Shown piece after piece: positions 3,001 to 56,516 of a stretch of DNA of 61,618 nt; positions within the stretch are counted from its first letter, which is position 1, and each line of letters opens with the position of its first letter. The DNA comes from a virus. The stretch lies in the IMG/VR virus record IMGVR_UViG_3300017692_000002, positions 1 through 61,618 of that record; one strand, given 5' to 3'. The translations under genes and the position numbers were made by a program. The notes under the pieces were generated by a model. That model was not told the DNA's origin. It saw only the letters and a program-made list of their open reading frames with translations, and searched no databases.

Positions 3001-6000
3001 GGACACGCAGCAACTCAGGAGAGTATCAATGCTCTCTTTGGTCGGGATGAGACTCATGAGATCTCGGATCCTGAATGGAGTCGCTTTGGTTTGAAGATGC
3101 TGCCAGAACATTACTGGCGCAATAGCATGGGCAAGAAGGTTGTCCAAGCACTGGGATTGAAGCCCAAAGCAGATGCAGACTTGGCATTGATGTCACGCCT
3201 GGAATCTTCGCTGGGTGCTCATGTGGAAAAGCTGTTGCTTGAGCGTGGCATCATCGCTCGTGAAACGGTGTCTCCTGAAGACATGGCACGTTATCGTGAA
3301 GAAGACCAAGGCAATAACACTGCAGATGCCAACTTCATTCGATTGAACTGGCAAGAGAAGAACAATAAGTTCTCTCTTCCTGCAGAAGCACAGGCTATCA
3401 AAGATGCGCAAGACAGCACCAGCAATATTCTGACGAATCTGCTGGGTGTTGAATCGTCCATCATTGAGCCGTCTCTGACTCCGATTGAATTCCGTCAAGC
3501 AACTCCTGATGGAACGACTGAAGGTGTTCCCAAGCGTCTGAAGCAAGCTGTTGCTGAAAAGAGCAAAGAGAAGAACTATCTTTCCCAAGACAAGTGGAAC
3601 TTGTTGAATGGAATGATGGATAACCTTGCACTTCAGTTGTTTGGTTTCAATGAAGTCACAGACATCAATACCCATCGTGCTAATCAGAAGGGACGACAAG
3701 CCAAAAACGATGGTCTGCAACGTGAGTTCGACCGTTACAAGGCATTTGTCAGTCAAACCCTGAATAACGGCACAGAAGGTGCATTGGATCGTCCTTTCTA
3801 CTTCCCGTACTCTATTTGGAGGCAACAACGGGTAGGTATGGCATCCAATGGATTCAATTCTCAGATGAGCAAGATGCATCGGTATCTGACTCACAAGAAT
3901 TCATGGAAAGCCACGGTTGATACTCAGAATGAAGCATCCTTTGATAGCTTCAAGTTGCGTGTTCTCGAAGGTCTGGGTGTCAAGACGGACAAGCAAGCCA
4001 ATGAGAAGTCATTGCCGATGTTTGAACAGTACTTTGATCCGGCAACGGAGAAAGGTCAGAAGCTCAATGCCGCTATTGCAGCCATCCAGGCTCGCAATGC
4101 AGGAGAAGACCTGTCTGAAGCACAGCAACAAGCCATCGTGACAGGAGTTAAAGAAGGTGGAGAGAACGGCCATACATTGGATGTTCTCTTTGCCATGGCT
4201 TCCTATCGGAGCATGTCTGAAGGTCAAACCACATTTCCAGCCACCATGATGGCTGAAGTGGACGGTGTGAACAACGGTCCTATGCTGAGTTTCATGCTTT
4301 ATGGTGCTGCTGCATCCATTGAAGCCATGTATGACCGACTCAATAAGGGTGGAATGTTTCGTATTGGAGATAAGTTCTCGCAGTACAACGTTTGGCGTGG
4401 ATCAGGTGGTAAGAAAGACCTGTATGAAAGCACTGCAGCCGACATGATCCAAGCTGCACAGGATATCCAAGCCAAGGATCCATCCAAGGTGCCGGTATTC
4501 AATGCAATCTACACTTTCACAGGTGAATTGCAAAAAGCTGGTGGTGAAGTGACCAAGGAAGGTCGCAATATCATCAAGAAGCCTATCAATGCCATTCACT
4601 TTGGCTCTGCAACTCGTCGTGCAGGTCAAAGTATGGCTGAAAGCTTTGTGGACTCCATCTATAAGCGCATGGAGAAGGTTTCGACTTCGCCTGTCGAGAA
4701 GCAAGCTGCACTGGAAACCAACTTGGTCAATGACTTGAACGTCATTCTTTCTGAAGCTGGTTTGAATACCTGGTCTGCCAACACTTCTATTGCAGAACTC
4801 ATGGCTTATGAGTTCAATACCAATGAAGTCAAGGCTATTGAAGGCGTATTCATGAAGAATCTTGGCATGGTTGCCAAGGGAACACTTGAAAACAACTTTA
4901 GGGACTACCTTGAGAAGCGTGACAAGTTCAATCAAGTAGCTCAGGTTACTTTTGGTTTGTACAACGCTGCTTATAAGGGTGCTCGTCGTGACTTTGTTCA
5001 GAAGCTGATTGGTGAAGGAAAGCTTGAAGTCAACAAGAAGGGTACTCCTATCCGTGACTTGACTCGTGCTGAAGAGAAAGAGTTTCAAGACTCTATCGCG
5101 GCCCTCCGGCCGCTCCTACACACAGCAATGTCAAAGAAGGATGGAGATAAGAACTCTGGTCTGATGATTGCAGATCAAGGTACTGCAGTCAGTATGGATG
5201 CAGCCTATGAAGGCAGGACTACCTTTGGAACACCGATTAATGGTGTGACTCAGCGTGGTAAGCCACAGATGTCTTTCACGACTCGTGGCAATGCTCCGAC
5301 CATGGAAGGTCCAGGCGTCGGAATGTCTTCCAAGTCTGTTCACTCGTTCGATAGCTCTATTTCCCATGAGACTCAATTGGGAAATGAGATCTTGAACGTA
5401 CATGATGCTGTTGGTACTGGCTTGAACAACATTCATGACATTGCCAATCAGATCAACTCCCATACTTGGACTGAACTGCTGAACTATTCTCCTTTGACGG
5501 AGATGTATTCCTCTTATATGAGCATGATCACCAATATGGCTGACATGGCTCAGAAGGGAGAACTGTCGGCTCAGACAATGGCTGATGTGAATAAGGTTCT
5601 GGTGGACTTTGTCGCTGCTGATGCCAAGAAGAACAAGGGCGAATCCAACTTCACTCCTGATACTGTGCTTCATACATTGGCTTATCAGATCAAATCTCTC
5701 AGCTATGCGGCTGACAAGATGAAGTTTGACACGATGGCAGAAATGGCATCGATGGATCAGTATGCCTTTGAAGGAGGCAACAAAATCATCACTGATGCTG
5801 ATCGTGCAGAAGCCAAGAAGCGTTCTGATGCATTGGTTAAGGATATTCCTGCTGCTCTGATGAAGCGTCTGGACCGTCTTACTGACATTCTTGGAGGCAA
5901 TACAGACACTTCGGAAGATATCAATGACTTCGAAGGTATGGAAGCTATTGCTGAACCCCTGGCTTCAGTCTGGGGTGAAGTAGGTACACCTACTCAGCAA

Positions 6001-9000
6001 AGCAACGAAGAATTGGTTGAATTCTTTGAAAACAAAGCCAATCCTGCAGCTAAGGATGTGCTGTTCAAGCTCAATGACATGTTGAAGACTCAGACTGATC
6101 GTGTCAGTCAAGTCAATCGTGCCATTGTTCAGCAGTTGGCTAAGTCTATGGACTTGAACATGCCTGTCACTTATGTGACAGCTTCGAATGTTCAGGAACA
6201 GGCAGTTCCGCCCAAGAGTGTTTCGATGGGATGGTTCTCGACGGAAGGTCAACCGACCGTCTATATCCAATCCAATGAGTTCACCCATGGTGCAGTGACA
6301 GTAGAACTGCTTATCCATGAATTGACTCATGCATCGGTGGCACAGATCGTGGCTGATAGCGGTCGGAATGCTGCTGCAACTCGGATCTTGAATGATCTGA
6401 CTGCGCTTCAAGCCAAGGCTGCTCAATATGCAGAAGCCAATGGTCTGAAGTTCAACAGCCCCCTCACCAACATCCAGGAGTTCATTACCTATGGAATGAC
6501 GAACCAAACATTCCAGCGTCAGGTTCTCTCTAAGATCGAACATAAGTCAGCAACTACCAAGAATGTGCTGGTGAAGGGCATGAAGTCCTTCATTGCTCAT
6601 ATTACTGGTTTGCTTTTCAATGGTTCTACCCGCACTGAGCAAGAGATTGCTGAGAACGGTCTGAGTGTTCTGATTGCTAATGTCTCTGGTTTGTATAATG
6701 AAGCCAGCAAAGCTCAGAAGTCTTATTGGACTTCTCTGAACTTGAGCATGGCAGCACAAGTCAATGACTACACAGTCACGGACATTTATGAAGCACTCAA
6801 GAATGGATCAGTAAAGCCTGCATTCAGTGCTCATCTGGAAAGCCTCTTGGATGGCATCGTCTTCAAGCTCCATGGTGCCAATGGATCCATCCATGCCAAT
6901 GCCCTCAAGAAGCAGGCAGGAACGGCCTTGGATGCATGGACGAAGGTTGTGGCTACAGGACAAGCTCCGATGGCTTCCAGCATCGCACAGAGCCCTCTGG
7001 CAGTTTCTGAGGAGGAAAGCTTTGTCACCGATCAGGTGGAAGCCGTCATGCGTTCTGCCCTCACTTCAGGTGAAGCACAGACCAAGCTCGTCTATAAGGA
7101 ACTGCAAGACCTCTACAACGAAGCCAAGAGCATCATCAAGCCGGAGTCCTTCCACAAGGGAGATTGGAGCCAAGCTACCAGCCAGGACAAGCAGATTGCC
7201 CAGGAGAAGCATGACTTCTTCTTCAAGCCCACGGCAGGAAGCAACAAGCAATCGGATTACCTTGCTCGGTTTGCTGCTCTTGGTTTGGGAACTCAAGAGT
7301 TCAACGCTATGTTGAGTGCTCCTACTCAGAGCAATGGTCGTACCATCATGAGTGGTAAGAACATTGCAGAGAAGGTGCAAATTGCCTTTGAGAAGGTACT
7401 TGAATGGTTTGTCTCCAAGGTTACACATACCTTTGAAGGTCAACCGGGTAATGAGAAGCTTCAAGCTCTCGTTGAACAACTTGTTGACATCGAAGCCAAG
7501 CGTAAGATGTCCATTCTCAAGAAGAATACGGGCAATAGCTATACAGAGATCCTTGAAGGCAAGGCTAAGGATTACTCTGATGCTGCAAGAGCCGCTGTGG
7601 TCAAGGCTACACAGACGAACTTTGTTCAGAACTCCAAGAGCGATCTTGTTCGTGGTTTGAACTCGGTAGTTCGTGTGGTTGCCTTGAATAAGGTGAACTC
7701 TTTCATGGATGCCATGCAGATGGTCCGTGATAGCGTGTTCGATCAACGTCAAGATGTGGTGTCTGATGTCATTCAACAGATTAAGGGACCGCGTCAGTCG
7801 ATTGAAGCCCTTCATGCATCCACAAAGACATTGGAGCAAGAACGTAAGGACTTGATTTCCAAGCAGAGCAAGTTGACCTTGGGAGCATTCAAGGATCAGG
7901 GAAAGAATCTGACCACAGAAGCCAAGGCAGCAATCTCAGCCATCGTTCTACGCACCGGAATGCACAACATTCTTGGACGTTACAACGTCAAGGAACTTGA
8001 GCAACTGGTGTCTGACAAGAACTTCTTGAATGCACAGATCAAGAAGGTTGAAGCTGAAGTTACTGGTTTGAATGTCAATATCCGTGGCTTCATGATTAAC
8101 CGTGCCAATGTCTTGGGTAAGTACAAGGCTACTGGACAGGTTAATGATGATCTGTTGCTGATGAACGGCTACAACATTGCTCGTCTATTTGGCACTACTC
8201 AACAAGGCAGGATCTCTGAGCAAGAGTCCCGTCGTATTGAGCCTATCATTGATGCACTGATCACACTGTATTCCATTGAGTACAGCAGTGATACCCATCT
8301 GCAGAACATCAAGAGTGTGTTTGCACAGGAGAATGCACGTAAGGATGAGAATGGTGTGGAATTCCTGTTGGCATTGCATCGTTCCCTGGAAGCTGATGCT
8401 CTGGAACGCAACTTCTCTGGTGTGAAGACACTGATGATGCATGGCTTCCTGCCTGACATCACCAATCCTCAGGTCGATCACAAGGTCGCTACAGAGGCTG
8501 ATGGAGTTGATTTGGAGGAGCAAGGCTATGTGAAGTATGCCCCAGTGCCTTTGGACCCTACAGACCCGGTTTCCGTGCCTCGATTCATCTATGTGATGAA
8601 GGGTGCAGGACTCAATCCGTATGTTTCTGGTGCGATCTCTACCAAGGCCATGAATGCCAAGGGATCCTTCATGGATACCAGCATCACAGGCATGACACCG
8701 GCACAACAAGCCCAGGCGATTCAAGCCATGGAGCAAAAGCGTGCAGCCAGCATTGCCAAGATGTTCAATAGCTCTCCTCGTCCTGATTTGGACAAGGTGA
8801 ATACGACATTCATGGCTCCGGTTCTCAATGAATCCGGTCAGGTGGTGGATTACCGCTACATGATGCGGGAAAACACTAAGGACGTGCTTCTGCAGCGTGA
8901 CAACAGCTTTAACAAGCTGATGGGTGTGTTGTCTGGTTCGATCTTCGACAAAGAGTCTTCGATTGAACAGAATCGTAAGATCGTTAAGGCTTTGTATCAA

Positions 9001-10332
9001 CAATACAAGGCAGACTTCTCGAAGAACACACGTTCTTTCGTGACAGTCTCTGAACGCTCTACAGACCCGGAAGATCGTCAGATTTGGGCCATGATTCCCC
9101 AGCGAACCAAGGATGACATCCGTGCCATCTGGGGAAGGGATGAAATCGTCATCCGCAGAGCAGAAGCCGACATTATCTTTGGCTATCGGAAGCAGTCTTT
9201 TGCTGACATGTTCCGTAAGCTAGATGCTCAAAGGAAAGAGAACAAAGAGCGTGCTTTGACTGGTCAAACGTTGCTGGATGAACTCAATCCCTTTGAGAAG
9301 GTTGCTACTTCTGTGGTTGAGCATACAATGACGCTCTATGCCAGGGTGAGTCTTGGCAAGACACAAGACCAAGCCGAGCGTTGGTCCCGTCGAGCAGCAA
9401 TGGTGATCACCAAAAGTGAACGAGTGTGGCAAGAAGTCATTCGTGAAACCAAGGACATCATTGTGGTGAAGTCAGGTATCGTGCTGTTGGGAAATATCTG
9501 GTCGAACATGACCTTGTTGGCTCTCAATGGTGTTTCTCGTAAGGGAATGGTTGAAGATCAACTGGTTGCTCTGAAGGCTGCTACGGCCTACCAGAATGAC
9601 TCGGAAGAACTCAACCGTTTGAAGACAGCACTTGAGATCGGATATAGCCATGGACAGACACAGGAAGCCAAAGACAGGATCGTGATCCTGGAAGATTCCC
9701 TTGCACGGAATCCTGTGAAGTCTCTGATTGATAAGGGACTGATGCCTACGATTGTGGAAGATGTGTCCTTAGACGAGGATATCTACTCCTACAAGAGCGC
9801 ATTGAGCAAGAAACTGGACAAGTACCAGAGCAAGCTCAACCCAACCATCCGAAACATCGGACGAGGGATCTACATGACCCACGACACCAAGATCTATCAG
9901 AGCTTGAGTCGTATCACGCAGATGTCTGACTTCGTGGCTCGGTATGCACTCTATCAGCACCTGATCAACAAGAAGAATGCACTATCGGAAGCCGATGCAG
10001 TGCAAGAAGCCAGGGATTCATTCATTAACTATGATCTTCCCATGCACAGGAACCTTCAGTACATGGATGACATGGGATTGATGATGTTTACCAAGTACTT
10101 CTTCAGGATTCAGAGAGTGTTGGTGAAGTTGGCTAGGGATAATCCCTTGAGAGTGATGCTTACTGTGGCATTGCAGCACTTCCATGACCTGGGTCCCATC
10201 GTTCTGGATAGCTCTGCTGTAGCTAAGTTGGGAAATAATCCACTGACAACAGGGATTCTTCAGTACCCGATGAGTCTTGACAACTTGGGTACAGTCAAAG
10301 GAATGGAATCTTTGATGAAGATGATGAAGTAA
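1..10332 (+). CDS. N4-type virion RNA polymerase (vRNAP), 5' end outside window
   Basis: This giant protein is packaged in the virion and injected to transcribe early genes. The frame is open at base 1; residue numbers here count from the TTG at base 10 (3440 residues visible). About 100 N-terminal residues are probably missing, judged from remembered similarity to N4 gp50. T7-family motifs lie in the middle third: a TxxGR-like segment WRQQRVG (1270-1276), motif A with D1418 (AEVDGVNNG), motif B with R1519, K1523, F1531 and G1532, and motif C with H1798-D1799 (NVHDAVG). The spacing R-x3-K-x7-F-G matches T7 R627/K631/Y639/G640, except that the Tyr is Phe. An HELTH zinc-protease-like motif lies at 2103-2107. 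The long flanking regions are presumably for packaging and injection. It is the last late gene before a bidirectional terminator. Confidence 0.93.
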   Translation, partial: QADLDQASLVNQLDIEKNGVLGTAVNLGAAAYSGLSRMAGNVAAMPADAVAYGDQLSLSEPEIQAVNRYKTGEATPEDLTLINTPKGMYSERDHPEMIARAKAQAVKDGMLSPLQLFERSQKASEISRNINQSFDRSSLVNTSDRAQFRDELTKDFDPIWDSVVTSAKATTNGDLFGGAYGAARGTAQLLSNALKAGINNPTAVAEYVAENIPQLAIGAVPKAGAALLTATNIGYASENYQKGMEQYAADNNGQMPDEATRGKMAFFAASTALAEHAMDVSMLKSIKGAEAAVDTLVKSASKGGLAGLERAVNKALGNGLGEAVTEGYQTFAEGEAALMPATAQDIYEGAAIGGLTGAAMVGGPAITGAVASTVKDAVTFQAAEREPSAGEKAQQAAYEAASTTGDVSALVDQKDVSYAPEKAVAALYEHAQADTATPEIKEANFQKATEIVSTLEAERSKINAALNPASSKEVEEAKAELPKWEAKLAALDPADTETREIYQEVIDETKEVIATGDVAVDPKVAKQLQIDLKKVEGRLTEANKVMAGFSTEQVRDIDPDTEIETIQSNPTEAPKAADRLINLSMAVPERVDAQKALDLANDTKNGLTDTQRDYLRKFSDARVAENALKSTEKVSRDVMYGSEPGAVNKFIGIEQYRKKITEAVQKGNTKLARKAMLSLETFAEQHQAKAEFAEDLITRGLGGQMVRTADGQWKEPSTRLSDEAIRKNGGLTLQTPKLPVAIRAESNALNAAVQELNAAIGLKRNNVTPIRSTPQAQAVATQEAAPATVTATPVAEVPRTTTGTNPVETTRLNDETTTESVQTVPESEAAVQEQGVPTEQSQGEAVQADQVPEKVRNQGKSVVYDKSTKDLPYQQRNLIADHTTQDEGKEGSASVRPLVAVKNFVSSLASGEVKVTDFLKEKGALSSKQDAAVQMFIAKAKEWNADIVKALVRTNTSDFYFKDPIQFFIQEGDGKLNLEQNIKSAITGVAMSFIYEEAANGHAATQESINALFGRDETHEISDPEWSRFGLKMLPEHYWRNSMGKKVVQALGLKPKADADLALMSRLESSLGAHVEKLLLERGIIARETVSPEDMARYREEDQGNNTADANFIRLNWQEKNNKFSLPAEAQAIKDAQDSTSNILTNLLGVESSIIEPSLTPIEFRQATPDGTTEGVPKRLKQAVAEKSKEKNYLSQDKWNLLNGMMDNLALQLFGFNEVTDINTHRANQKGRQAKNDGLQREFDRYKAFVSQTLNNGTEGALDRPFYFPYSIWRQQRVGMASNGFNSQMSKMHRYLTHKNSWKATVDTQNEASFDSFKLRVLEGLGVKTDKQANEKSLPMFEQYFDPATEKGQKLNAAIAAIQARNAGEDLSEAQQQAIVTGVKEGGENGHTLDVLFAMASYRSMSEGQTTFPATMMAEVDGVNNGPMLSFMLYGAAASIEAMYDRLNKGGMFRIGDKFSQYNVWRGSGGKKDLYESTAADMIQAAQDIQAKDPSKVPVFNAIYTFTGELQKAGGEVTKEGRNIIKKPINAIHFGSATRRAGQSMAESFVDSIYKRMEKVSTSPVEKQAALETNLVNDLNVILSEAGLNTWSANTSIAELMAYEFNTNEVKAIEGVFMKNLGMVAKGTLENNFRDYLEKRDKFNQVAQVTFGLYNAAYKGARRDFVQKLIGEGKLEVNKKGTPIRDLTRAEEKEFQDSIAALRPLLHTAMSKKDGDKNSGLMIADQGTAVSMDAAYEGRTTFGTPINGVTQRGKPQMSFTTRGNAPTMEGPGVGMSSKSVHSFDSSISHETQLGNEILNVHDAVGTGLNNIHDIANQINSHTWTELLNYSPLTEMYSSYMSMITNMADMAQKGELSAQTMADVNKVLVDFVAADAKKNKGESNFTPDTVLHTLAYQIKSLSYAADKMKFDTMAEMASMDQYAFEGGNKIITDADRAEAKKRSDALVKDIPAALMKRLDRLTDILGGNTDTSEDINDFEGMEAIAEPLASVWGEVGTPTQQSNEELVEFFENKANPAAKDVLFKLNDMLKTQTDRVSQVNRAIVQQLAKSMDLNMPVTYVTASNVQEQAVPPKSVSMGWFSTEGQPTVYIQSNEFTHGAVTVELLIHELTHASVAQIVADSGRNAAATRILNDLTALQAKAAQYAEANGLKFNSPLTNIQEFITYGMTNQTFQRQVLSKIEHKSATTKNVLVKGMKSFIAHITGLLFNGSTRTEQEIAENGLSVLIANVSGLYNEASKAQKSYWTSLNLSMAAQVNDYTVTDIYEALKNGSVKPAFSAHLESLLDGIVFKLHGANGSIHANALKKQAGTALDAWTKVVATGQAPMASSIAQSPLAVSEEESFVTDQVEAVMRSALTSGEAQTKLVYKELQDLYNEAKSIIKPESFHKGDWSQATSQDKQIAQEKHDFFFKPTAGSNKQSDYLARFAALGLGTQEFNAMLSAPTQSNGRTIMSGKNIAEKVQIAFEKVLEWFVSKVTHTFEGQPGNEKLQALVEQLVDIEAKRKMSILKKNTGNSYTEILEGKAKDYSDAARAAVVKATQTNFVQNSKSDLVRGLNSVVRVVALNKVNSFMDAMQMVRDSVFDQRQDVVSDVIQQIKGPRQSIEALHASTKTLEQERKDLISKQSKLTLGAFKDQGKNLTTEAKAAISAIVLRTGMHNILGRYNVKELEQLVSDKNFLNAQIKKVEAEVTGLNVNIRGFMINRANVLGKYKATGQVNDDLLLMNGYNIARLFGTTQQGRISEQESRRIEPIIDALITLYSIEYSSDTHLQNIKSVFAQENARKDENGVEFLLALHRSLEADALERNFSGVKTLMMHGFLPDITNPQVDHKVATEADGVDLEEQGYVKYAPVPLDPTDPVSVPRFIYVMKGAGLNPYVSGAISTKAMNAKGSFMDTSITGMTPAQQAQAIQAMEQKRAASIAKMFNSSPRPDLDKVNTTFMAPVLNESGQVVDYRYMMRENTKDVLLQRDNSFNKLMGVLSGSIFDKESSIEQNRKIVKALYQQYKADFSKNTRSFVTVSERSTDPEDRQIWAMIPQRTKDDIRAIWGRDEIVIRRAEADIIFGYRKQSFADMFRKLDAQRKENKERALTGQTLLDELNPFEKVATSVVEHTMTLYARVSLGKTQDQAERWSRRAAMVITKSERVWQEVIRETKDIIVVKSGIVLLGNIWSNMTLLALNGVSRKGMVEDQLVALKAATAYQNDSEELNRLKTALEIGYSHGQTQEAKDRIVILEDSLARNPVKSLIDKGLMPTIVEDVSLDEDIYSYKSALSKKLDKYQSKLNPTIRNIGRGIYMTHDTKIYQSLSRITQMSDFVARYALYQHLINKKNALSEADAVQEARDSFINYDLPMHRNLQYMDDMGLMMFTKYFFRIQRVLVKLARDNPLRVMLTVALQHFHDLGPIVLDSSAVAKLGNNPLTTGILQYPMSLDNLGTVKGMESLMKMMK

Positions 10333-49369: not shown

Positions 49370-49404
49370 AAAAAAATAGCCCCGTATCCTTTCGGATACG
49401 GAGC
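49370..49404 (-). terminator. Rho-independent terminator after RNAP2
   Basis: An 8-bp stem CCGTATCC/GGATACGG with minus-strand GAAA loop and a seven-T run, 34 bases after the RNAP2 stop. Confidence 0.9.
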
Positions 49405-49416
49405 CTGTTCGATGAA

Positions 49417-49437: not shown

Positions 49438-50685
49438 TCAGCAGAGTGCATAGTTGCTTTCACGGATCTTGTCACCAAGATTGTCAATGAACTTGTCAAA
49501 CTTGAATGGAGTGCCCGTGATCTGAGTGATCAGGTCGTCCAGCAGATTGCTATCCGCCAGATCAGCCATGATTTCCTTGTAGTGATAGCGAACCCAGTTG
49601 ATGTTGTTCGCATGAGCCTTGAACTCATCATGAATAGTGACGAGTTCGAATGGCTTGTGCTGCAGCATGGATTGCATGATCGAAGCCAGCTTCTCCAGAT
49701 GCTTATCAGACAACTGAGCCACATTCACTCCATTCAGATAGGGTGCAATCACCACATCAGCAACCGTAGAACGGTTGTATTGTTGAATGTAGTAGCTGAC
49801 CTTCTCATCAATGGTTTGAACAGCTTGATCAGTGCCCATAATACGAGCACGAATCTCGCTTTGCACCACAGCATATGCATTCATGATCATTTTCAGATCA
49901 TAGTTGCAACGACGATGCATGGTTCTCAGCACATAACCATCGACCGAATGCACCACATTGGCTGCATTGCTCAGACCCTTCTCCTGTCCTTCATTCTCAT
50001 AGAACTCATAAGTGAATGTGCTGTGGTCCAGTTCATCCACTTCCAAGCGCACTTGACGCTTGTTCATCACCTTCACCTTGGCATCGTAGCCATCAGGCAG
50101 CTTCCATTCATGGCTTAGTGCCCATGCTTGCCAGCTTTCCAGAAGAATCTGCAGCAGTTCCCATGCTCCAGGTGCTACTTCATGCACAGCCTGATAGAAA
50201 GCATTCAGTTCAGGCGTACCTTCACCAAACAGCTTCTTCGGCTCTGCCTTGGAGCCATAGAGCACCGTCATGACAGCCTGCTTGGCGTCATCACGCTTCA
50301 CGGCAGCCAGTCCACCCAGGAGCCTGCGCATGGCATCTGTGACCTCCGTATAGGCGTCTGCACGCTTATTCGGATCCACCATGCCAGTAGCCCTGGCACC
50401 GCTCTCACAGCCCGTCAGAACGCTCATAACCTGCATTCCCGAGCATGCACCATCCACACCCACCAAATGGCCTGTAGGGAGCTTCTGTTGGGCTTTACGG
50501 ATGGCTCCGACAGCCTTCACATACAGCGGACGATCCTTCAGCTTGACGCCTGCACTGAAGGATTCCAGCACATCAATGTTGTCTCGACCCCATTGAATGC
50601 GATCTTCGAACTCTTTCTTGTCCAAGCCATAGGCATTGGCAGCATCAATCAGCAAATACTCAAAGCCAGTGTAAGTCTTGAACAT
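49438..50685 (-). CDS. RNA polymerase subunit RNAP2 (N4 gp16-like)
   Basis: A 415-residue protein carrying the catalytic palm and fingers of a T7-type RNA polymerase. Motif A VGVDGACSGMQ (D78), motif B with R131, K135, Y143 and G144 (AVMTVLYGS), and motif C TIHDEF (D353). With RNAP1 it forms the heterodimeric polymerase for middle genes. Unlike the vRNAP it keeps Tyr at the sugar-sensing site. A GAA-loop hairpin lies 35 bases upstream of the ATG, and AGGAG is the ribosome site. Confidence 0.92.
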   Translation of the reverse strand: MFKTYTGFEYLLIDAANAYGLDKKEFEDRIQWGRDNIDVLESFSAGVKLKDRPLYVKAVGAIRKAQQKLPTGHLVGVDGACSGMQVMSVLTGCESGARATGMVDPNKRADAYTEVTDAMRRLLGGLAAVKRDDAKQAVMTVLYGSKAEPKKLFGEGTPELNAFYQAVHEVAPGAWELLQILLESWQAWALSHEWKLPDGYDAKVKVMNKRQVRLEVDELDHSTFTYEFYENEGQEKGLSNAANVVHSVDGYVLRTMHRRCNYDLKMIMNAYAVVQSEIRARIMGTDQAVQTIDEKVSYYIQQYNRSTVADVVIAPYLNGVNVAQLSDKHLEKLASIMQSMLQHKPFELVTIHDEFKAHANNINWVRYHYKEIMADLADSNLLDDLITQITGTPFKFDKFIDNLGDKIRESNYALC

Positions 50686-50734: not shown

Positions 50735-50935
50735 TTACTTCAACAACAGATAAGCCATGAGAACAGCAGGAGGGACTAGTTCGTTTTCTTCTCCAAAAGG
50801 TATGTAGACAGGATCTTCATTTACCCAATGCCACCAGTCACCGTCATATTCCCAGTAGTCTGGGTATGTATTCATGGCTTCATCAGCAGCTATGTCTAGA
50901 TACTCTCCACTTTCTAGAAATATGAAGTATTTCAT
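50735..50935 (-). CDS. Array protein 16 (short paralog family)
   Basis: A 66-residue member of the tandem family. It keeps the aromatic core (NTYPDYWEYDGDWWHWVNED) and a C-terminal VPPAVLMAYLLLK, a diverged form of the family's FPxxFRMALLLLG ending. Coupled to member 15 by an ATGA overlap. Last member before the RNAP2 promoter. Function unknown. Confidence 0.65.
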   Translation of the reverse strand: MKYFIFLESGEYLDIAADEAMNTYPDYWEYDGDWWHWVNEDPVYIPFGEENELVPPAVLMAYLLLK

Positions 50936-51123
50936 GTTTCTTTCAAGATAAGAGCAGCCATCTTCACAGCAGCAGGTATTTCTGAGTCATAGATATACAC
51001 TAGATTACCTTCTTTATTAAGGAAGTAGAACCTAGTGGAATCGACACAGAAATAGCAATCTCTGTACCATCCTTGATCATCAGGTTGTGCCATGGAACCA
51101 TCAGCATTGATCCATAGAGTCAT
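50932..51123 (-). CDS. Array protein 15
   Basis: A 63-residue diverged family member; ends EIPAAVKMAALILKET. ATGA overlap with both neighbours. Function unknown. Confidence 0.65.
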   Translation of the reverse strand: MTLWINADGSMAQPDDQGWYRDCYFCVDSTRFYFLNKEGNLVYIYDSEIPAAVKMAALILKET

Positions 51124-51404
51124 GATCGTTCATGTATCAATGAGGCCATCAATACTGTGCTGTTAGGTCTGAAGATGAACTTTGAATAGCCATTTGAATC
51201 CACTTTCCACCAAAATTCCAGCATTGCATGGATATAGCAATTAGTTAACAGGGTATCTTGCAGTTTATCTGGGATCTCTATGACAGAACCATCAAATCCA
51301 TAAACAACATTGGGTGTTCCAAATATTCTTAGAACTGTGTGTTTTTCATGATTATCTGGATCAGTATCGTCAATAGGAAGATCTATGTATCGTTCATCGT
51401 GCAT
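51120..51404 (-). CDS. Array protein 14
   Basis: A 94-residue diverged member; the C-terminal helix is FRPNSTVLMASLIHERS and lacks the usual Pro-x-x-F. It has a longer acidic N-terminus. ATGA overlap with member 15. Function unknown. Confidence 0.62.
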   Translation of the reverse strand: MHDERYIDLPIDDTDPDNHEKHTVLRIFGTPNVVYGFDGSVIEIPDKLQDTLLTNCYIHAMLEFWWKVDSNGYSKFIFRPNSTVLMASLIHERS

Positions 51405-51413
51405 ATATACCTT

Positions 51414-51656
51414 TCATCCATTGATATAGTATTTAGGCGTCAGTATTAGTGCAGCCACACGAACAAGTTCAGGAATATTATTTTCATCTTGTATTGACAA
51501 ATCATTGTTATCTTCAGGGAGCCAATACCATATAGTTACTTCTTTTCTTCTTATTCTGCAATAACAGTTCAACATTCTTCCTGTATTATCTTCTACGGCT
51601 TCTGTACCATCCTTATTGATGTGAATAACATCGAATGACATAACATCACCTGACAA
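51414..51656 (-). CDS. Array protein 13
   Basis: An 80-residue member. Core VTIWYWLPEDN, C-terminal NIPELVRVAALILTPK with a short extension. Overlaps member 12 by 11 bases. Function unknown. Confidence 0.65.
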   Translation of the reverse strand: MSGDVMSFDVIHINKDGTEAVEDNTGRMLNCYCRIRRKEVTIWYWLPEDNNDLSIQDENNIPELVRVAALILTPKYYING

Positions 51657-51882
51657 TCATCATTGCTATGCGGATAGCCCTGGGAATGTTGTCATCCTTC
51701 ATGTTGTAGGCTTTACCATTCTTCCTGATCCACTTCCATTGCTGGTTTCCTGCTACATCCACTGTGTATTCGTAGCATTCAATCAGTGGATCCACATTGA
51801 CCTGAAGCAATGTGCCATCTCTCTTGAAGTAGTAGCACTGAACACTTTGCCATTGAGGCAGCTTTGAGTAGTTAATCTTCAT
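51646..51882 (-). CDS. Array protein 12
   Basis: A 78-residue member: CYYFKRDGTLLQVNVDPLIE, then QWKWIRKNGKAY and the ending NIPRAIRIAMMIVR. The N-terminal strand with xxDG resembles member 11. Function unknown. Confidence 0.65.
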   Translation of the reverse strand: MKINYSKLPQWQSVQCYYFKRDGTLLQVNVDPLIECYEYTVDVAGNQQWKWIRKNGKAYNMKDDNIPRAIRIAMMIVR

Positions 51883-52090
51883 CTAATTCTCCAGTTATAA
51901 GTAAAGCCATTTGAATGGGTTGAGGGAGATCACTCTCATTTATAAGAACTACACTCGTGTTTTTCTTGTACACCCATTCTTTGAAGATGTTTCGGTAGTA
52001 AACATCATTCAAATCACTAGTTTGCCAAGAAGAGACAGTAGATGTTCCATCTGGATTCCAATACTGTCGTTTTTGATATTTCCATGTCAT
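51872..52090 (-). CDS. Array protein 11
   Basis: A 72-residue member: QYWNPDGTSTVSSWQTSDL, KEWVYKKN and the ending DLPQPIQMALLITGELDED. It keeps MALL at the family position. Function unknown. Confidence 0.66.
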   Translation of the reverse strand: MTWKYQKRQYWNPDGTSTVSSWQTSDLNDVYYRNIFKEWVYKKNTSVVLINESDLPQPIQMALLITGELDED

Positions 52091-52094
52091 ATAT

Positions 52095-52313
52095 TTACCC
52101 CATGATTAAGACCATCATTTGAAGTTCTTTAGGAACATCTTCTAAGTCAAGCTGACAGAGGTTGTTCCTTGTCCATGTAAACCAGCTTCCAGAGGAAGGA
52201 GTTCTATCCCTGTAGAACAAATAGCACCCATCAGGAAGACTTGGAAAGCGTAGATATTGAAGATCTATTTCTTCATAGAGCAGTCCTGCATAGAAGATGG
52301 TGCATTCCTTCAT
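52095..52313 (-). CDS. Array protein 10
   Basis: A 72-residue member from the ATG at 52313, just after the stop of the broken copy. Ends DVPKELQMMVLIMG. N-terminal IFYAGLLYEEIDLQYLRFP fits the family's first strands. Function unknown. Confidence 0.65.
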   Translation of the reverse strand: MKECTIFYAGLLYEEIDLQYLRFPSLPDGCYLFYRDRTPSSGSWFTWTRNNLCQLDLEDVPKELQMMVLIMG

Positions 52314-52314
52314 G

Positions 52315-52590
52315 TTATTCCTTTGGTTTGACACCCATGAGCATCATCTTCATCTTGAAATAGCCAAGATCTTCATCAGGAATGTTTGCATCTCTGATCC
52401 ATTTGAGTCTTTCAGTTAGTTGTTGATGAAACCAACGACCCCTTTCGGGACTTACCTTTGATTCTTTTATCTAATCATAGATATAGCATGCCTTCTCAGG
52501 CATTCCATGCCCTTCAGCAACAGTGAAGAGTTCCTTGGTTTCAGGATCCATACACACGAATCTTGTGTTTGGCGTGACGTCAATCATCAT
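52315..52590 (-). pseudogene. Array copy 9, interrupted by in-frame TAG
   Basis: The reading frame of 92 codons starts with ATGA overlap to member 8, encodes VTPNTRFVCMDPETKELF, meets TAG at codon 40 (52471-52473) and continues open in the same frame through WIRDANIPDEDLGYFKMKMM to LMGVKPKE and TAA. Everything except the one codon is intact, so it is a very recent pseudogene, a suppressed/read-through gene, or two short proteins. Confidence 0.7.
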
Positions 52591-52850
52591 TGAATCCCCA
52601 TGATTAATAGAGCCATTCGAAAGTCAGATGGAAATTGTTCGAAAGGAATGGATTTCCACCCACCTACATAGTCCCCTTCTTTATGTGGCAATGTTTCCAT
52701 CATTCCATAACGAAGTTCAGAGGAATCATCTGAAGTATCTAGGAGATACTTGTTTCTAAGATGGGTAGGAAATACATTTCCCCAAGTAGTCTCAACTACC
52801 TGACCGTTATCCCAAATGTATATAGGATATCTATCATATATGTCTCTCAT
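52587..52850 (-). CDS. Array protein 8
   Basis: An 87-residue core-type member: YIWDNGQVVETTWG, LRYGMMETLP, GGWKSIPFEQFPSDFRMALLIMGIQ in parts. All three family blocks are present. ATGA overlap downstream. Function unknown. Confidence 0.75.
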   Translation of the reverse strand: MRDIYDRYPIYIWDNGQVVETTWGNVFPTHLRNKYLLDTSDDSSELRYGMMETLPHKEGDYVGGWKSIPFEQFPSDFRMALLIMGIQ

Positions 52851-53164
52851 TTAACCCCCAGTAGCATTAAAGCCATTCGAAAACCAGCAGGAAACTGATA
52901 CATTGGAATATGTACCCAGTAAGAATGAGGATCCAATTCACTAAGCTCATCAGCATCCAACTGTTTTCTATATTCAGGATGCTTGAATACATACATTCCT
53001 TCTGTCCAGCCAGAAGTCCTTTTATGAGCCATTCCTGCGTCATAGCAGAAACAATCCACGACAGGATCTGTTTTCTTGATCTCTGCAGATGCATCATCTC
53101 CGCATTGATATGCAAACTCATGCATCTGATCATCTTTCCAGTAATACAAGATACCGTTGATCAT
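52847..53164 (-). CDS. Array protein 7 (longest member)
   Basis: A 105-residue member: YYWKDDQMHEFAYQ, CFCYDAGMA, YWVHIPMYQFPAGFRMALM. An insertion of about 15 residues lies in the middle block. ATGA and TAATG couplings on its two sides. Function unknown. Confidence 0.75.
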   Translation of the reverse strand: MINGILYYWKDDQMHEFAYQCGDDASAEIKKTDPVVDCFCYDAGMAHKRTSGWTEGMYVFKHPEYRKQLDADELSELDPHSYWVHIPMYQFPAGFRMALMLLGVK

Positions 53165-53403
53165 TATTGAACTCCTAAGATAAGTAATGCCATTCTGAAA
53201 TCTACTGGAAAGTTTTCCAGTGGAACGTGCATCCAGTATCTATTAGCAGTTGGATAGAAGATTCCATACCTATTAGAAGTCTTCTCACAGTTTGCATCAA
53301 CACAATACAGTGATCGAATGCTTTGAACATGGTCTAAGTCCCTTTCGACTTCTTCTACTTGGTTGTTTCTCCAAACATAGAATATGTTTCTGGTTTCAAT
53401 CAT
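53164..53403 (-). CDS. Array protein 6
   Basis: A 79-residue core-type member: FYVWRNNQVEEVERDL, LYCVDANCEKTSNRYGIFY, YWMHVPLENFPVDFRMALL, then ILGVQ. Function unknown. Confidence 0.76.
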   Translation of the reverse strand: MIETRNIFYVWRNNQVEEVERDLDHVQSIRSLYCVDANCEKTSNRYGIFYPTANRYWMHVPLENFPVDFRMALLILGVQ

Positions 53404-53666
53404 GTGATTCCTAACAACAAAAGTGCCATTCTGAAATCATGAGGAAAGTCCTCAAAAGGCACACTGACCCACTTATTTTGAACATCCTCTTGTTGATGCT
53501 TGGCTTCGTAAACACCGTATCTTGATAAGTGTCCTTGTTCAAAAAAGTTATCAATACAAAAACAATTTAGGTATTGATTGTCGTTTTCAAGAAAGTCTTC
53601 CCAACTTACATCCACAACTTGAGAGTCTTTCCAGAAGTATTGGTTAGTTTCATTGTTGTCTCTCAT
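53400..53666 (-). CDS. Array protein 5
   Basis: An 88-residue core-type member: YFWKDSQVVDVSWEDF, CFCIDNFFEQGHLSRYGVYE, VPFEDFPHDFRMALLLLGIT. ATGA overlaps on both sides. Function unknown. Confidence 0.76.
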   Translation of the reverse strand: MRDNNETNQYFWKDSQVVDVSWEDFLENDNQYLNCFCIDNFFEQGHLSRYGVYEAKHQQEDVQNKWVSVPFEDFPHDFRMALLLLGIT

Positions 53667-53923
53667 GTGATTCCTAACAGTAGTAAAGACATGCGGAACT
53701 CAGCAGGGAACTGTTCAAATGGAACATGTTTCCAACCAAGTTCAAAACGCCCATTTATATAGTCCATCTCCTTAAACATTCCATAACGTTCATCAGGAGC
53801 TTGTCGGCCTATATCCACCATGAGATGGTCTCCCCATTTATTTCGTGTGGCATCAGATACAAAGATCTTGCAAGTCAGTTCAACAACTTGGTTGTTCTTC
53901 CACATATATCCATAGATCATCAT
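53663..53923 (-). CDS. Array protein 4
   Basis: An 86-residue core-type member: YMWKNNQVVELTCKIF, LMVDIGRQAPDERYGMFKE, VPFEQFPAEFRMSLLLLGIT. ATGA overlaps on both sides. Function unknown. Confidence 0.76.
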   Translation of the reverse strand: MMIYGYMWKNNQVVELTCKIFVSDATRNKWGDHLMVDIGRQAPDERYGMFKEMDYINGRFELGWKHVPFEQFPAEFRMSLLLLGIT

Positions 53924-54153
53924 TGCACTCCCATCAATAAAAGAGACATTCTGAACTCTGGTGATAATTGTTCAAATGGAATGTGAACCCATTCAATGAT
54001 TGGTCCAGTTTGTTCATATATTCCATACCTGTATTCAGCAAGAGTAACCGCGGTATCAACACATTGCATGTTGAATCTTTCAGGGCCAATTATCTGATCT
54101 ACTTCAATGACTTGGCTTCCATCCCAGTAATAGGACATTGGATGTAATTTCAT
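53920..54153 (-). CDS. Array protein 3
   Basis: A 77-residue core-type member: YYWDGSQVIEVDQI, MQCVDTAVTLAEYRYGIYE, WVHIPFEQLSPEFRMSLLL, then MGVQ. Function unknown. Confidence 0.76.
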   Translation of the reverse strand: MKLHPMSYYWDGSQVIEVDQIIGPERFNMQCVDTAVTLAEYRYGIYEQTGPIIEWVHIPFEQLSPEFRMSLLLMGVQ

Positions 54154-54353
54154 TCGTCGGTTCCTAAAAATAACAGTGCTAGTTGGAAGTCTTTAGGGAA
54201 GTCTTCCAAAGGTACATGGTTCCATACAGCATTTTCTTTCCAGAACCCATACCTCCCCTCAGGATCTTCAAATGCAAGATCAACATAAGGTGTTGTATCT
54301 GGCAATGCAATTGTTTTATGCATTCTTCCTTCAAGCCAATAAAGATATCTCAT
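54150..54353 (-). CDS. Array protein 2
   Basis: A 67-residue compact member: YWLEGRMHKTIALPD, EDPEGRYGFWKE, VPLEDFPKDFQLALLFLGT. ATGA overlaps on both sides. Function unknown. Confidence 0.75.
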   Translation of the reverse strand: MRYLYWLEGRMHKTIALPDTTPYVDLAFEDPEGRYGFWKENAVWNHVPLEDFPKDFQLALLFLGTDE

Positions 54354-54577
54354 GTGATCCCCAAAATAAGAAGTGCCATTCGAAACTCCACAGGGAAGTC
54401 ATCGAATGGCACATGAGTCCAACCGCCTTCTGTCTTCCAGTTTCCATATCTCATATCTGGCCGCTTGAAGCCAAGATCTATGACAAACAGGCCCTTGATA
54501 GCTTCATGAACATCCTCTGTTTCAACAGCTTGTTCACCATCCCAATAGATGTATTCACCTTCATCAGATTGGTTCAC
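54350..54577 (-). CDS. Array protein 1
   Basis: A 75-residue core-type member directly downstream of RNAP1 (overlap of stop and start): YIYWDGEQAVETEDV, FVIDLGFKRPDMRYGNWK, VPFDDFPVEFRMALLILGIT. Translational coupling to RNAP1 suggests co-expression with the polymerase. Function unknown. Confidence 0.77.
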   Translation of the reverse strand: MNQSDEGEYIYWDGEQAVETEDVHEAIKGLFVIDLGFKRPDMRYGNWKTEGGWTHVPFDDFPVEFRMALLILGIT

Positions 54578-55479
54578 GGCACACCATCCACGATCTCTTC
54601 ATTAGCCAGTTCCAGCATGGCTTTCTTGAAGCCAGTACCTTGCGTGGTGATGTGATAGCCTGAAGCGTAGATACGGCCTCTCTTGTCGTTCTTGTGAGTC
54701 AGATAGAACTTGTTGCCTTGCTCCACCATTAGCATGTAGAACTCATAGCTTTGACGCTTGAAGTTAATCCAGTTCTGATGCTGCTCAGGTGTTTCAAACT
54801 CGAATGTAGGTTCCTCTTCGAAGCTAGATACGAAATCCGTATCAATCCGCAGAGCTACCTTGTTCATCTTGTTCAGAACATCCAAACAGATGTCTCCATC
54901 ATGATGATTCCCAGATCCAAGGATCAATGAATCATTGTGAGTGAGGTATCCACTGGAATAGTTGTGAGTCAGTTCCAATGGTTCACACACCATCGGAGGC
55001 AGATACTCACTGTTCCTGATGAATTCGAGCAAGTTCTCAGGCATATACAGCCTTGAAATCACCATCAAGCTGGCTTGCTTGGACACCTTGTTAATGTCGA
55101 ATGCATCGGTATCGCACAGCACAGCGAGCATTTCAGCCACCGTAAGGATGGCTGCAACCCGATCATTGAACCCCAGCCTGCTTGCAAGCTTGGCAGTCAC
55201 CGAGGTAAACAACTCAGCCCGCTGCACATAGGCAATACCCACGAAAATGTCAGTCACCAATTCCTTGATGTCCAACACCTTCAACTGAGACACACGCTCA
55301 TTCTTCGAAGCGTAGTACTCAGAGCCCATGTATTCCTCAATCAACTCCACACCATGGAGAACCTTTTCCATGTTCTCTTCATTGGTTTCAATCGCATGGC
55401 GAATCTTCACGTCAATGTGCTTCCTGTTGAAGCGCATTTCGTTCATCTCTTGCATAGCAATCTGCTTGATCGTGTCCAT
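54574..55479 (-). CDS. RNA polymerase subunit RNAP1 (N4 gp15-like)
   Basis: A 301-residue N-terminal part of a split T7-type polymerase. The helical N-terminal region leads to the TxxGR-type motif at about residues 264-271 (NDKRGRIYASG), preceded by KFYLTHK. It pairs with RNAP2 to transcribe middle genes. It starts after AAGGAG, 36 bases downstream of a GAA-loop hairpin promoter. The next gene is the first of the paralog array, overlapping its stop. Confidence 0.9.
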   Translation of the reverse strand: MDTIKQIAMQEMNEMRFNRKHIDVKIRHAIETNEENMEKVLHGVELIEEYMGSEYYASKNERVSQLKVLDIKELVTDIFVGIAYVQRAELFTSVTAKLASRLGFNDRVAAILTVAEMLAVLCDTDAFDINKVSKQASLMVISRLYMPENLLEFIRNSEYLPPMVCEPLELTHNYSSGYLTHNDSLILGSGNHHDGDICLDVLNKMNKVALRIDTDFVSSFEEEPTFEFETPEQHQNWINFKRQSYEFYMLMVEQGNKFYLTHKNDKRGRIYASGYHITTQGTGFKKAMLELANEEIVDGVP

Positions 55480-55514
55480 GTTGGACTCCTTGTAAAGTTA
55501 ATACACCACAGACA

Positions 55515-55525
55515 GTGCGAAGCAC
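55515..55525 (-). promoter_or_regulatory. vRNAP-type early promoter of RNAP1
   Basis: Hairpin GTGC-GAA-GCAC on the template (plus) strand. The same 11-base core occurs at 56875 and 58649 and a one-base variant at 58129, with flanks of the type ccacagAcaGTGC or ccacgGATaGTGC. Placement 36 bases before the RNAP1 start fits an N4-type early promoter. Confidence 0.7.
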
Positions 55526-55532
55526 GTTTATC

Positions 55533-55754
55533 TCAAGAAAAGATCAATAAAGCCATCCTTGCCCACCTAGGAACTTCTTCATCTGTAATGGCATACAAGT
55601 TATTGCCCATTGTTTTATTTACTATGAACCATTGATGAGATGGTCCTACTTCTCCATATAGATAGCTGCCTACTGGATAATAGGATGGATCTTTATCTGT
55701 AGGTATTTCTTCATACTCGCCTTCAGCTATGAAAGCCAATCGTTTATTAGCCAT
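55533..55754 (-). CDS. Array-family protein upstream of RNAP1 (B)
   Basis: A 73-residue diverged family member: PVGSYLYGEVGPSHQWFIV and the ending EVPRWARMALLIFS. It lies on the other side of the RNAP1 promoter from the main array. Function unknown. Confidence 0.65.
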   Translation of the reverse strand: MANKRLAFIAEGEYEEIPTDKDPSYYPVGSYLYGEVGPSHQWFIVNKTMGNNLYAITDEEVPRWARMALLIFS

Positions 55755-55757
55755 AGA

Positions 55758-55979
55758 TCACTTCAATAACAACATAGTCATTTGAATCCATTGAGGAACA
55801 TTTTCAGACTTAACAGTTCTTACCCAAGCATGTGCATCTTGAATCAAGAACCATTCATCTACCCCCATACTTTCATATCTTCTATAGATATAAGTACCAA
55901 AAGGGAGATTTTTTGGGTTCTCTAGCTTTTTCACCTCATAATGTGTCTGATCAGGTAGAAATATGATTATCTTGCTCAT
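55758..55979 (-). CDS. Array-family protein upstream of RNAP1 (A)
   Basis: A 73-residue diverged member, clearly closest to B: PFGTYIYRRYESMGVDEWFLI and NVPQWIQMTMLLLK. Three-base gap to B. Function unknown. Confidence 0.65.
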   Translation of the reverse strand: MSKIIIFLPDQTHYEVKKLENPKNLPFGTYIYRRYESMGVDEWFLIQDAHAWVRTVKSENVPQWIQMTMLLLK

Positions 55980-56463: not shown

Positions 56464-56498
56464 AAAAAAACCTGCACACACCCGAAGGTATGTGCAGG
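56464..56498 (-). terminator. Strong rho-independent terminator
   Basis: A 12- to 13-bp stem (CCTGCACACACC/GGTATGTGCAGG with G-T pair) and seven T on the minus strand, after the 56517 gene. It separates two early transcription units. Confidence 0.92.
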
Positions 56499-56516
56499 CA
56501 TTCATCCAACCCCAAC

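What the first reader, a model, noticed from the sequence alone, without database searches (positions are those of the whole stretch)
50735..55979. Array of about 18 short coupled paralogs around the split RNA polymerase genes
Between RNAP2 and RNAP1 lie 16 consecutive short frames (63-105 codons, one broken), plus two more relatives just upstream of RNAP1. Most core members share three blocks: an N-terminal [YF]-x-W-x(2)-[NGS]-Q-V-x-E strand, a middle RYG[IMV] strand, and a C-terminal [VI]P-[FL]-E-x-FP-x(2)-FRMALL-[LI]-[LM]G helix. Most are joined by ATGA overlaps, and member 1 overlaps the RNAP1 stop, so all are coupled to polymerase expression. Identity is highest next to RNAP1 and falls toward RNAP2, as expected for repeated duplication with old copies drifting. 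I know no named family. Possible roles are a diversifying set of host-protein inhibitors (anti-defence) or adaptors for the RNAP1/RNAP2 enzyme; both are inference.
Basis: partly seen in the sequence, partly recalled or inferred. Interest (0 to 1): 0.92.

Follow-up and report, generated by a model that had tools for sequence, protein, structure and literature searches.

The report
Small-protein array inside phage polymerase operon
This N4-like phage carries 18 related, fast-changing small genes (one broken) packed around and between the two genes for its split RNA polymerase; relatives carry from none to about 17 copies at the same spot, so the spot looks like a gene-cassette nursery, probably for proteins aimed at the bacterial host.

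Summary
The window is an N4-like phage. Sixteen short frames lie between RNAP1 and RNAP2 (one with an in-frame TAG) and two lie just upstream of RNAP1. In a leave-one-out test using window members only, all 17 intact proteins rank first against 5,782 decoys, 15 of them at E<1e-3. The family has no convincing Pfam, PHROG, NCBIfam, PADLOC or PDB match. It is not private to this phage: an iterated profile finds 150 members in 52 of 95 N4-like loci, all but two directly upstream of RNAP1 or between RNAP1 and RNAP2. Models of two divergent members are confident and share one strand/helix order. The C-terminal helix motif is selected as protein, but its last Leu-Gly also encodes the next gene's Shine-Dalgarno sequence. 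Copy number is labile, single genes come and go exactly at the RNAP1/RNAP2 junction, and the gap diverges between phages whose flanks are about 90% identical. RNAP2-side copies belong largely to an older subfamily, not drifted copies of RNAP1-side ones. Best reading: a hypervariable, co-translated cassette array of early accessory proteins, most likely host-directed; polymerase adaptors are the main rival. Cassette behaviour is shown; function is inferred.

The parts
55758..55979 (-). upstream member u0, 73 aa (type B-like)
   Evidence: LOO E 2e-6; type B profile 21.6 bits
55533..55754 (-). upstream member u1, 73 aa (type B-like)
   Evidence: LOO E 7e-6; type B profile 19.5 bits; AF2 model pLDDT 89.1, pTM 0.76
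54574..55479 (-). RNAP1, small subunit of the N4-type heterodimeric RNA polymerase (host gene of the operon)
   Evidence: phrog_2166 E 1.2e-101
54350..54577 (-). member 1, 75 aa, GTG start overlapping the RNAP1 stop; type A
   Evidence: LOO E 1e-17; type A 52 bits
54150..54353 (-). member 2, 67 aa; type A
   Evidence: LOO E 2e-7; type A 36 bits
53920..54153 (-). member 3, 77 aa; type A
   Evidence: LOO E 2e-11; type A 38 bits
53663..53923 (-). member 4, 86 aa; type A
   Evidence: LOO E 6e-13; type A 56 bits
53400..53666 (-). member 5, 88 aa; type A; modelled
   Evidence: LOO E 2e-20; AF2 pLDDT 88.7, pTM 0.77
53164..53403 (-). member 6, 79 aa; type A
   Evidence: LOO E 6e-17; type A 64.5 bits
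52847..53164 (-). member 7, 105 aa; type A with a central insertion, lacks RYG
   Evidence: LOO E 3e-10; type A 27 bits
52587..52850 (-). member 8, 87 aa; type A
   Evidence: LOO E 8e-18; type A 49 bits
52320..52590 (-). member 9, interrupted by one in-frame TAG after codon 39; the frame continues to a family-like end (NIPDEDLGYFKMKMMLMG)
   Evidence: by eye only, no profile test on the broken frame
52095..52334 (-). member 10, 79 aa; type B, related to the RNAP2-side member of other phages
   Evidence: type B 41 bits; iterated profile E 1e-16
51872..52090 (-). member 11, 72 aa, divergent
   Evidence: LOO E 2e-4
51646..51882 (-). member 12, 78 aa, divergent, basic (pI 9.4)
   Evidence: LOO E 6e-9; pI
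51414..51656 (-). member 13, 80 aa, divergent
   Evidence: LOO E 8e-5
51120..51404 (-). member 14, 94 aa, the least certain relative
   Evidence: LOO E 0.4, still rank 1 of 5783
50932..51123 (-). member 15, 63 aa
   Evidence: LOO E 7e-7
50735..50935 (-). member 16, 66 aa, very acidic (net charge -12)
   Evidence: LOO E 0.037, rank 1 of 5783
49438..50685 (-). RNAP2, large subunit of the polymerase; end of the operon
   Evidence: phrog_2051 E 8.7e-149
56470..56499 (-). intrinsic terminator-like hairpin upstream of the unit
   Evidence: 13-bp stem plus T run
49378..49405 (-). intrinsic terminator-like hairpin downstream of RNAP2
   Evidence: 12-bp stem plus T run; the only other sense-strand call inside the unit is a weak 5-bp stem at 52438-52451

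Best explanation
The array is a hypervariable cassette locus of early accessory genes built into the polymerase operon. Each cassette encodes a 63-105 aa alpha/beta protein; divergent members are predicted with the same fold order (beta-hairpin, optional helices, three strands, C-terminal helix). Many carry at their 3' end, inside the codons of the conserved C-terminal helix, the Shine-Dalgarno sequence and often the start codon of the next gene, so a cassette can be added, lost or swapped while the chain of coupled translation from RNAP1 to RNAP2 stays intact. New copies arise by duplication and are exchanged between phages. The proteins are probably made early, with the polymerase subunits, and most likely act on host targets (takeover or counter-defence): one scaffold, with variable loops and termini giving different targets. 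Shown here: family membership, location, coupling signals, cassette gain, loss and replacement, shared predicted fold. Inferred: early expression (from N4 biology), the route of exchange, and host-directed function.
For: Paralogy: (shuffled and reversed decoys no better than E 0.45 and 3.5). Location: 150 members in 52 of 95 loci, none on the other strand, all but two beside RNAP1 or in the gap; whole-record search of 14 phages finds matches clustered only there. Copy number 0 to about 17: L104 has a 17-ORF gap, L108 11 ORFs, and the phCDa type carries its array upstream of RNAP1. On the RNAP1 tree, presence in the gap needs 12 changes, at least 5 forced by starred branches. Exact one-gene present/absent difference at the RNAP1/RNAP2 junction, L085 vs L087. 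Local hypervariability: L012/L014/L019 have RNAP1, RNAP2 and upstream DNA 87-94% identical but gaps only 51-73%. Dual coding: terminal Gly is GGA/GGG in 49 of 60 against 260 of 747 elsewhere, p 1e-12; gene ends pair with anti-SD better than synonymous resamples (0 of 200 as good in other contigs, 4 of 200 in the window), with no effect in internal control segments. One fold order. Dispensable: about a dozen relatives have RNAP1 and RNAP2 under 50 nt apart with no member found in the searched region. The array is AT-rich, 40% against 47% GC. That phage early genes often act on the host is the view of PMC3915230 on N4-like phages.
Against: No direct functional evidence and no match to a known anti-defence or takeover protein. 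dN/dS shows no positive selection. Confinement to the polymerase locus over large divergence is unusual for general accessory genes and would also suit a polymerase-linked role. Host unknown. Early expression in this phage rests on analogy with N4.
Confidence: 0.55

Rival explanations
1. The small proteins are interchangeable adaptors or specificity factors of the RNAP1/RNAP2 polymerase, binding it through the conserved C-terminal helix and differing in the part that contacts DNA or other factors (N4 RNAPII is known to need a helper, gp2).
For: Members are found only beside the polymerase genes in divergent N4-like phages; translational coupling to RNAP1 and along the array; conserved C-terminal motif against a variable rest.
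Against: Relatives with closely similar RNAP1 have no member in the searched region and RNAP1/RNAP2 nearly abutting; single-gene presence/absence between close relatives; 16 coupled adaptors for one enzyme would be hard to rationalise; the helix motif may simply be the core of the fold.
Confidence: 0.2
2. The gap is a neutral or selfish insertion site: genes land and duplicate there because homing endonucleases and recombination act on the split polymerase gene, with little benefit to the phage.
For: HNH-endonuclease-like ORFs sit in the gap of L039, L082, L125, and unrelated small genes occupy it in other phages (L098, pVa5, phi50-12); one member here carries a nonsense codon.
Against: dN/dS is clearly below 1 in all orthologue pairs with measurable dS, reading frames stay open in 17 of 18 copies, and fold order and C-terminal motif are kept at 20-40% identity, so the products are selected.
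Confidence: 0.12
3. The array mainly sets timing or stoichiometry: a long coupled spacer delays or lowers RNAP2 relative to RNAP1, or many copies give a high dose of one function.
For: Coupled translation and size variation of the gap from a few nt to 4.7 kb.
Against: Amino-acid sequence is under purifying selection and the copies differ by about 50-80%, unlike dosage copies; the phCDa group keeps its array upstream of RNAP1.
Confidence: 0.08

Closest known systems
Small genes inserted between RNAP1 and RNAP2 of N4-like phages (noted in PMC3915230; LUZ7 gp21, Litunavirus ORF20-22, PHROGs 8597, 8144, 30755)
   Same: Same place, size and strand; the Litunavirus ORFs share the C-terminal helix signal with type B (hhalign 86.6%, 18 columns)
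   Different: Described only as hypothetical insertions; no family, array or cassette behaviour reported in the papers read; one to four genes rather than sixteen
Early array upstream of RNAP1 in Pseudomonas phage phCDa (MH382836, hypothetical proteins phCDa_38-48)
   Same: Coupled small ORFs, five of which the iterated profile accepts at E<1e-3, with ends of the form VPE-h-h-[RK]-h-A-x-h-L
   Different: Array lies before RNAP1, not in the gap; profile-profile link to type A and type B is weak (P 0.0026 and 0.00085)
Paralog arrays of Vibrio phage phi50-12 (four ORFs between RNAP1 and RNAP2, six after RNAP2)
   Same: Coupled tandem paralogs at the same locus (LOO E mostly 1e-7 to 1e-16)
   Different: Unrelated protein families (hhalign probability under 1% against types A and B): the architecture, not the family, is shared
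Host-takeover and anti-defence gene clusters of phage early regions (general knowledge)
   Same: Small, AT-rich, dispensable, quickly replaced genes next to conserved early genes
   Different: Usually mixed unrelated families; here one family repeated up to 16-17 times; function untested

Membership tests
N4-like phage (Schitoviridae) | split RNAP1/RNAP2 polymerase | tested here: met
   phrog_2166 and phrog_2051 matches; RNAP1 homologues in 425 phage records, N4 itself included
N4-like phage (Schitoviridae) | giant virion RNA polymerase of about 3,500 aa | tested here: inconclusive
   A 3,443-codon open frame at 1-10332 fits in length but was not searched by profile
Small-protein family of this array | profile similarity among members | tested here: met
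   (15 of 17 at E<1e-3, all rank 1), controls
Small-protein family of this array | common fold | tested here: inconclusive
   two divergent members, pLDDT 89, same strand/helix order; no direct superposition was run, both models used family alignments, and the weakest members were not modelled
Known Pfam, PHROG, NCBIfam or PADLOC family | significant profile match | tested here: not met
   best matches E 0.008 or worse, single members, no consistency
Known solved fold | clear structural match | tested here: inconclusive
   no Foldseek E below 0.4, best VIA Z 3.6; in the viral library three weak hits are N4-like phage proteins (phCDa, phi176, SBP1)
Anti-defence or host-takeover protein | inhibits a host or defence protein | not testable with these tools
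   no homologue of known function; needs experiment
RNA polymerase adaptor | binds RNAP1/RNAP2 | not testable with these tools
   no complex prediction available; members absent from a number of relatives
Gene family under positive selection | dN/dS above 1 | tested here: not met
   0.03-0.64 across orthologue pairs (whole gene, Nei-Gojobori); site-wise selection not tested

The most novel reading that the evidence does not exclude
The locus is a cassette-exchange system: the conserved gene end, dual-coded as helix and ribosome-binding site, acts as a standard connector that lets N4-like phages swap a repertoire of single-scaffold binding proteins, each copy recognising a different host or defence protein (or retargeting the split polymerase).
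Probability: 0.2. Interest if true: 0.85.

Novelty: new variant of a known kind. Interest (0 to 1): 0.66.

Why it matters
Small genes between RNAP1 and RNAP2 had been noticed, but not as one large, unnamed protein family with its own cassette logic. If host-directed, these arrays hold well over a hundred variants of one small scaffold, in a place that can be found in N4-like genomes from the polymerase genes alone: a practical source of candidates for screening host inhibitors and counter-defence proteins, and a clean system for studying how phages swap genes without breaking an essential operon.

Tried and rejected
Pfam, PHROG, NCBIfam, PADLOC and PDB sequence searches of members: no consistent match. 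tblastn of a core member in 50,697 phage records: none. Foldseek and VIA against PDB: only weak, mixed hits (GYF, MbtH-like, CDI complex chains), not used. Stop-codon reassignment for the broken member: TAG ends 6 of 81 non-overlapping ORFs in the window, so a nonsense change or a sequence error is likelier. Tree of members: mostly unresolved (69 columns), used only for grouping. pVa5-type gap genes with KMExLL-like ends looked similar by eye but are not detectably related to each other or to this family. In one search two ORF coordinates (one in L108, one in phCDa) were mistyped and contain stops; their leave-one-out values are ignored. Literature: no description of the family found in the papers searched; only open-licence papers were searchable.
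Full report
Setting. The window is a 61,618-base virus record from IMG/VR. RNAP1 (54574-55479) and RNAP2 (49438-50685) are confirmed as the two subunits of the N4-type polymerase; a 3,443-codon frame at 1-10332 fits the virion polymerase in length. The closest isolated phages are Pseudomonas and enterobacterial Schitoviridae at about 45-52% identity in RNAP1.

Observation. Are they relatives? I built a profile from all window members but one and searched for the one left out among 5,782 reversed decoys. All 17 intact members ranked first; 15 had E below 1e-3, members at 51120 and 50735 being weaker. The eighteenth, at about 52320-52590, is interrupted by one TAG and then continues to a family-like end. 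The three motifs are real but belong to the eight RNAP1-side copies; the others keep mainly the C-terminal P-x-x-x-[RK]-h-x-x-L-[LI] end. Strong terminator-like hairpins lie at 56470-56499 and 49378-49405; between them the only sense-strand call is one weak 5-bp stem, so the array and both polymerase genes probably form one transcription unit.

Relatives. RNAP1 searches brought in N4-like contigs. The RNAP1-RNAP2 distance runs from 3 nt to 4.7 kb. An iterated profile, with shuffled and reversed controls that reach no better than E 0.45 and 3.5, finds 150 members in 52 of 95 non-redundant loci. None is on the opposite strand, and all but two lie directly upstream of RNAP1 or between the two genes. 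The iteration had not fully converged when stopped, so the count is approximate. These loci cover at most 7-8 kb on either side of RNAP1; a search of 14 whole records found matches clustered only there. L104 carries a 17-ORF array in its gap (8 accepted by the profile at E<1e-3, the rest by their ends and by leave-one-out within the set), L108 one of 11, and the group of the isolated phage phCDa carries its array before RNAP1. Links to the L108, Litunavirus and phCDa arrays are weaker and often limited to the C-terminal helix.

Two subfamilies. Profiles built without the window separate type A (ends FP-x-EFR-x(3)-LLLLG) and type B (ends [DE]VPKEL). They are related over 70 columns (hhalign 92%). 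In the window the eight RNAP1-side copies are type A (27-64 bits) and 52095-52334 is type B (41 bits). Order A then B recurs in about ten other contigs. So the decline of identity towards RNAP2 mainly reflects two old groups plus an eight-fold presence of type A here, not simple ageing. The member tree is too short to resolve more, though window copies do cluster on it (10 changes against 15.1 shuffled).

Fold. Models of a type A member and of an upstream type B-like member reach pLDDT 89 and pTM 0.76-0.77 with the same order: two strands, a helical or loop stretch, three strands, C-terminal helix. No clear match exists among solved structures. Three of the top sixteen viral-library hits are small proteins of N4-like phages (phCDa, phi176, SBP1), all weak.

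What the conserved end does. Codons of the FRMALL part vary freely while the residues are kept, so it is selected as protein. The final Leu-Gly is different: its glycine is GGA or GGG in 49 of 60 cases against 260 of 747 glycines elsewhere in the same genes (p 1e-12), giving TTAGGA or TTGGGG just before the next ATG. Gene ends pair with the anti-Shine-Dalgarno sequence better than synonymous resamples (0 of 200 as good in other contigs, 4 of 200 in the window), and internal stretches show nothing. A gene end is therefore often also the ribosome-binding site of its neighbour.

Turnover. On the RNAP1 tree, presence in the gap changes at least 12 times by parsimony, 5 forced by well-supported branches. 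L085 and L087 differ by exactly one member between the RNAP1 stop and the RNAP2 leader; L097 and L098 differ likewise by an unrelated gene. L012, L014 and L019 are 87-94% identical in RNAP1, RNAP2 and upstream DNA but only 51-73% in the gap, with some genes nearly identical and others replaced. Orthologous members evolve faster than RNAP1 in most pairs but stay under purifying selection. HNH-endonuclease-like genes share the gap in several phages, a possible engine of turnover. Vibrio phage phi50-12 has built two unrelated paralog arrays at the same locus.

Function. The proteins look selected, are absent from a number of close relatives, small, mostly acidic in this window, and sit in the polymerase operon, which is early in N4. 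Early genes of N4-like phages are commonly read as host-interaction genes (PMC3915230). This fits a host-directed repertoire on a common scaffold better than polymerase subunits, but the strict attachment to the polymerase genes keeps the adaptor reading alive. No experiment or homologue decides it.

Novelty. Insertion of small genes between RNAP1 and RNAP2 is on record (PMC3915230). I found no description of a single expanded family, of its fold, of the dual-coded end, or of cassette exchange in the papers searched. I therefore call it a new variant of a known kind, a hypervariable early accessory locus.

Noticed in passing
L062 (MN584918, Vibrio phage phi50-12) 5105-5878 and 7179-8547: Two further tandem paralog sets, unrelated to this family and to each other, lie between RNAP1 and RNAP2 and after RNAP2.
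   Followed up: partly
L039 about 8863-9555, L082 7923-8600, L125 7965-8627: HNH/homing-endonuclease-like ORFs (judged by sequence, not profile-tested) sit in the RNAP1-RNAP2 gap; L100 4203-4838 may be another.
   Followed up: no
window 52320-52590: Single in-frame TAG in one array member; TAG serves as a stop elsewhere in the window, so nonsense mutation or sequence error rather than recoding.
   Followed up: partly
L047-L049 and L064 (pVa5-type Vibrio phages), RNAP1-RNAP2 gap: Small coupled ORFs with 8-nt overlaps and similar KMExLL-like ends but no detectable kinship; the ends may be shaped by start/stop overlap and Shine-Dalgarno constraints.
   Followed up: partly
L055 (Acinetobacter phage XC38) 5554-7628 and L059 (pYD6-A) 8031-9333: RNAP2 is annotated in two separate pieces, suggesting an intron or insertion in the polymerase gene itself.
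   Followed up: no
window 50735-55979: The array is AT-rich (40% GC against 47% for the window).
   Followed up: no
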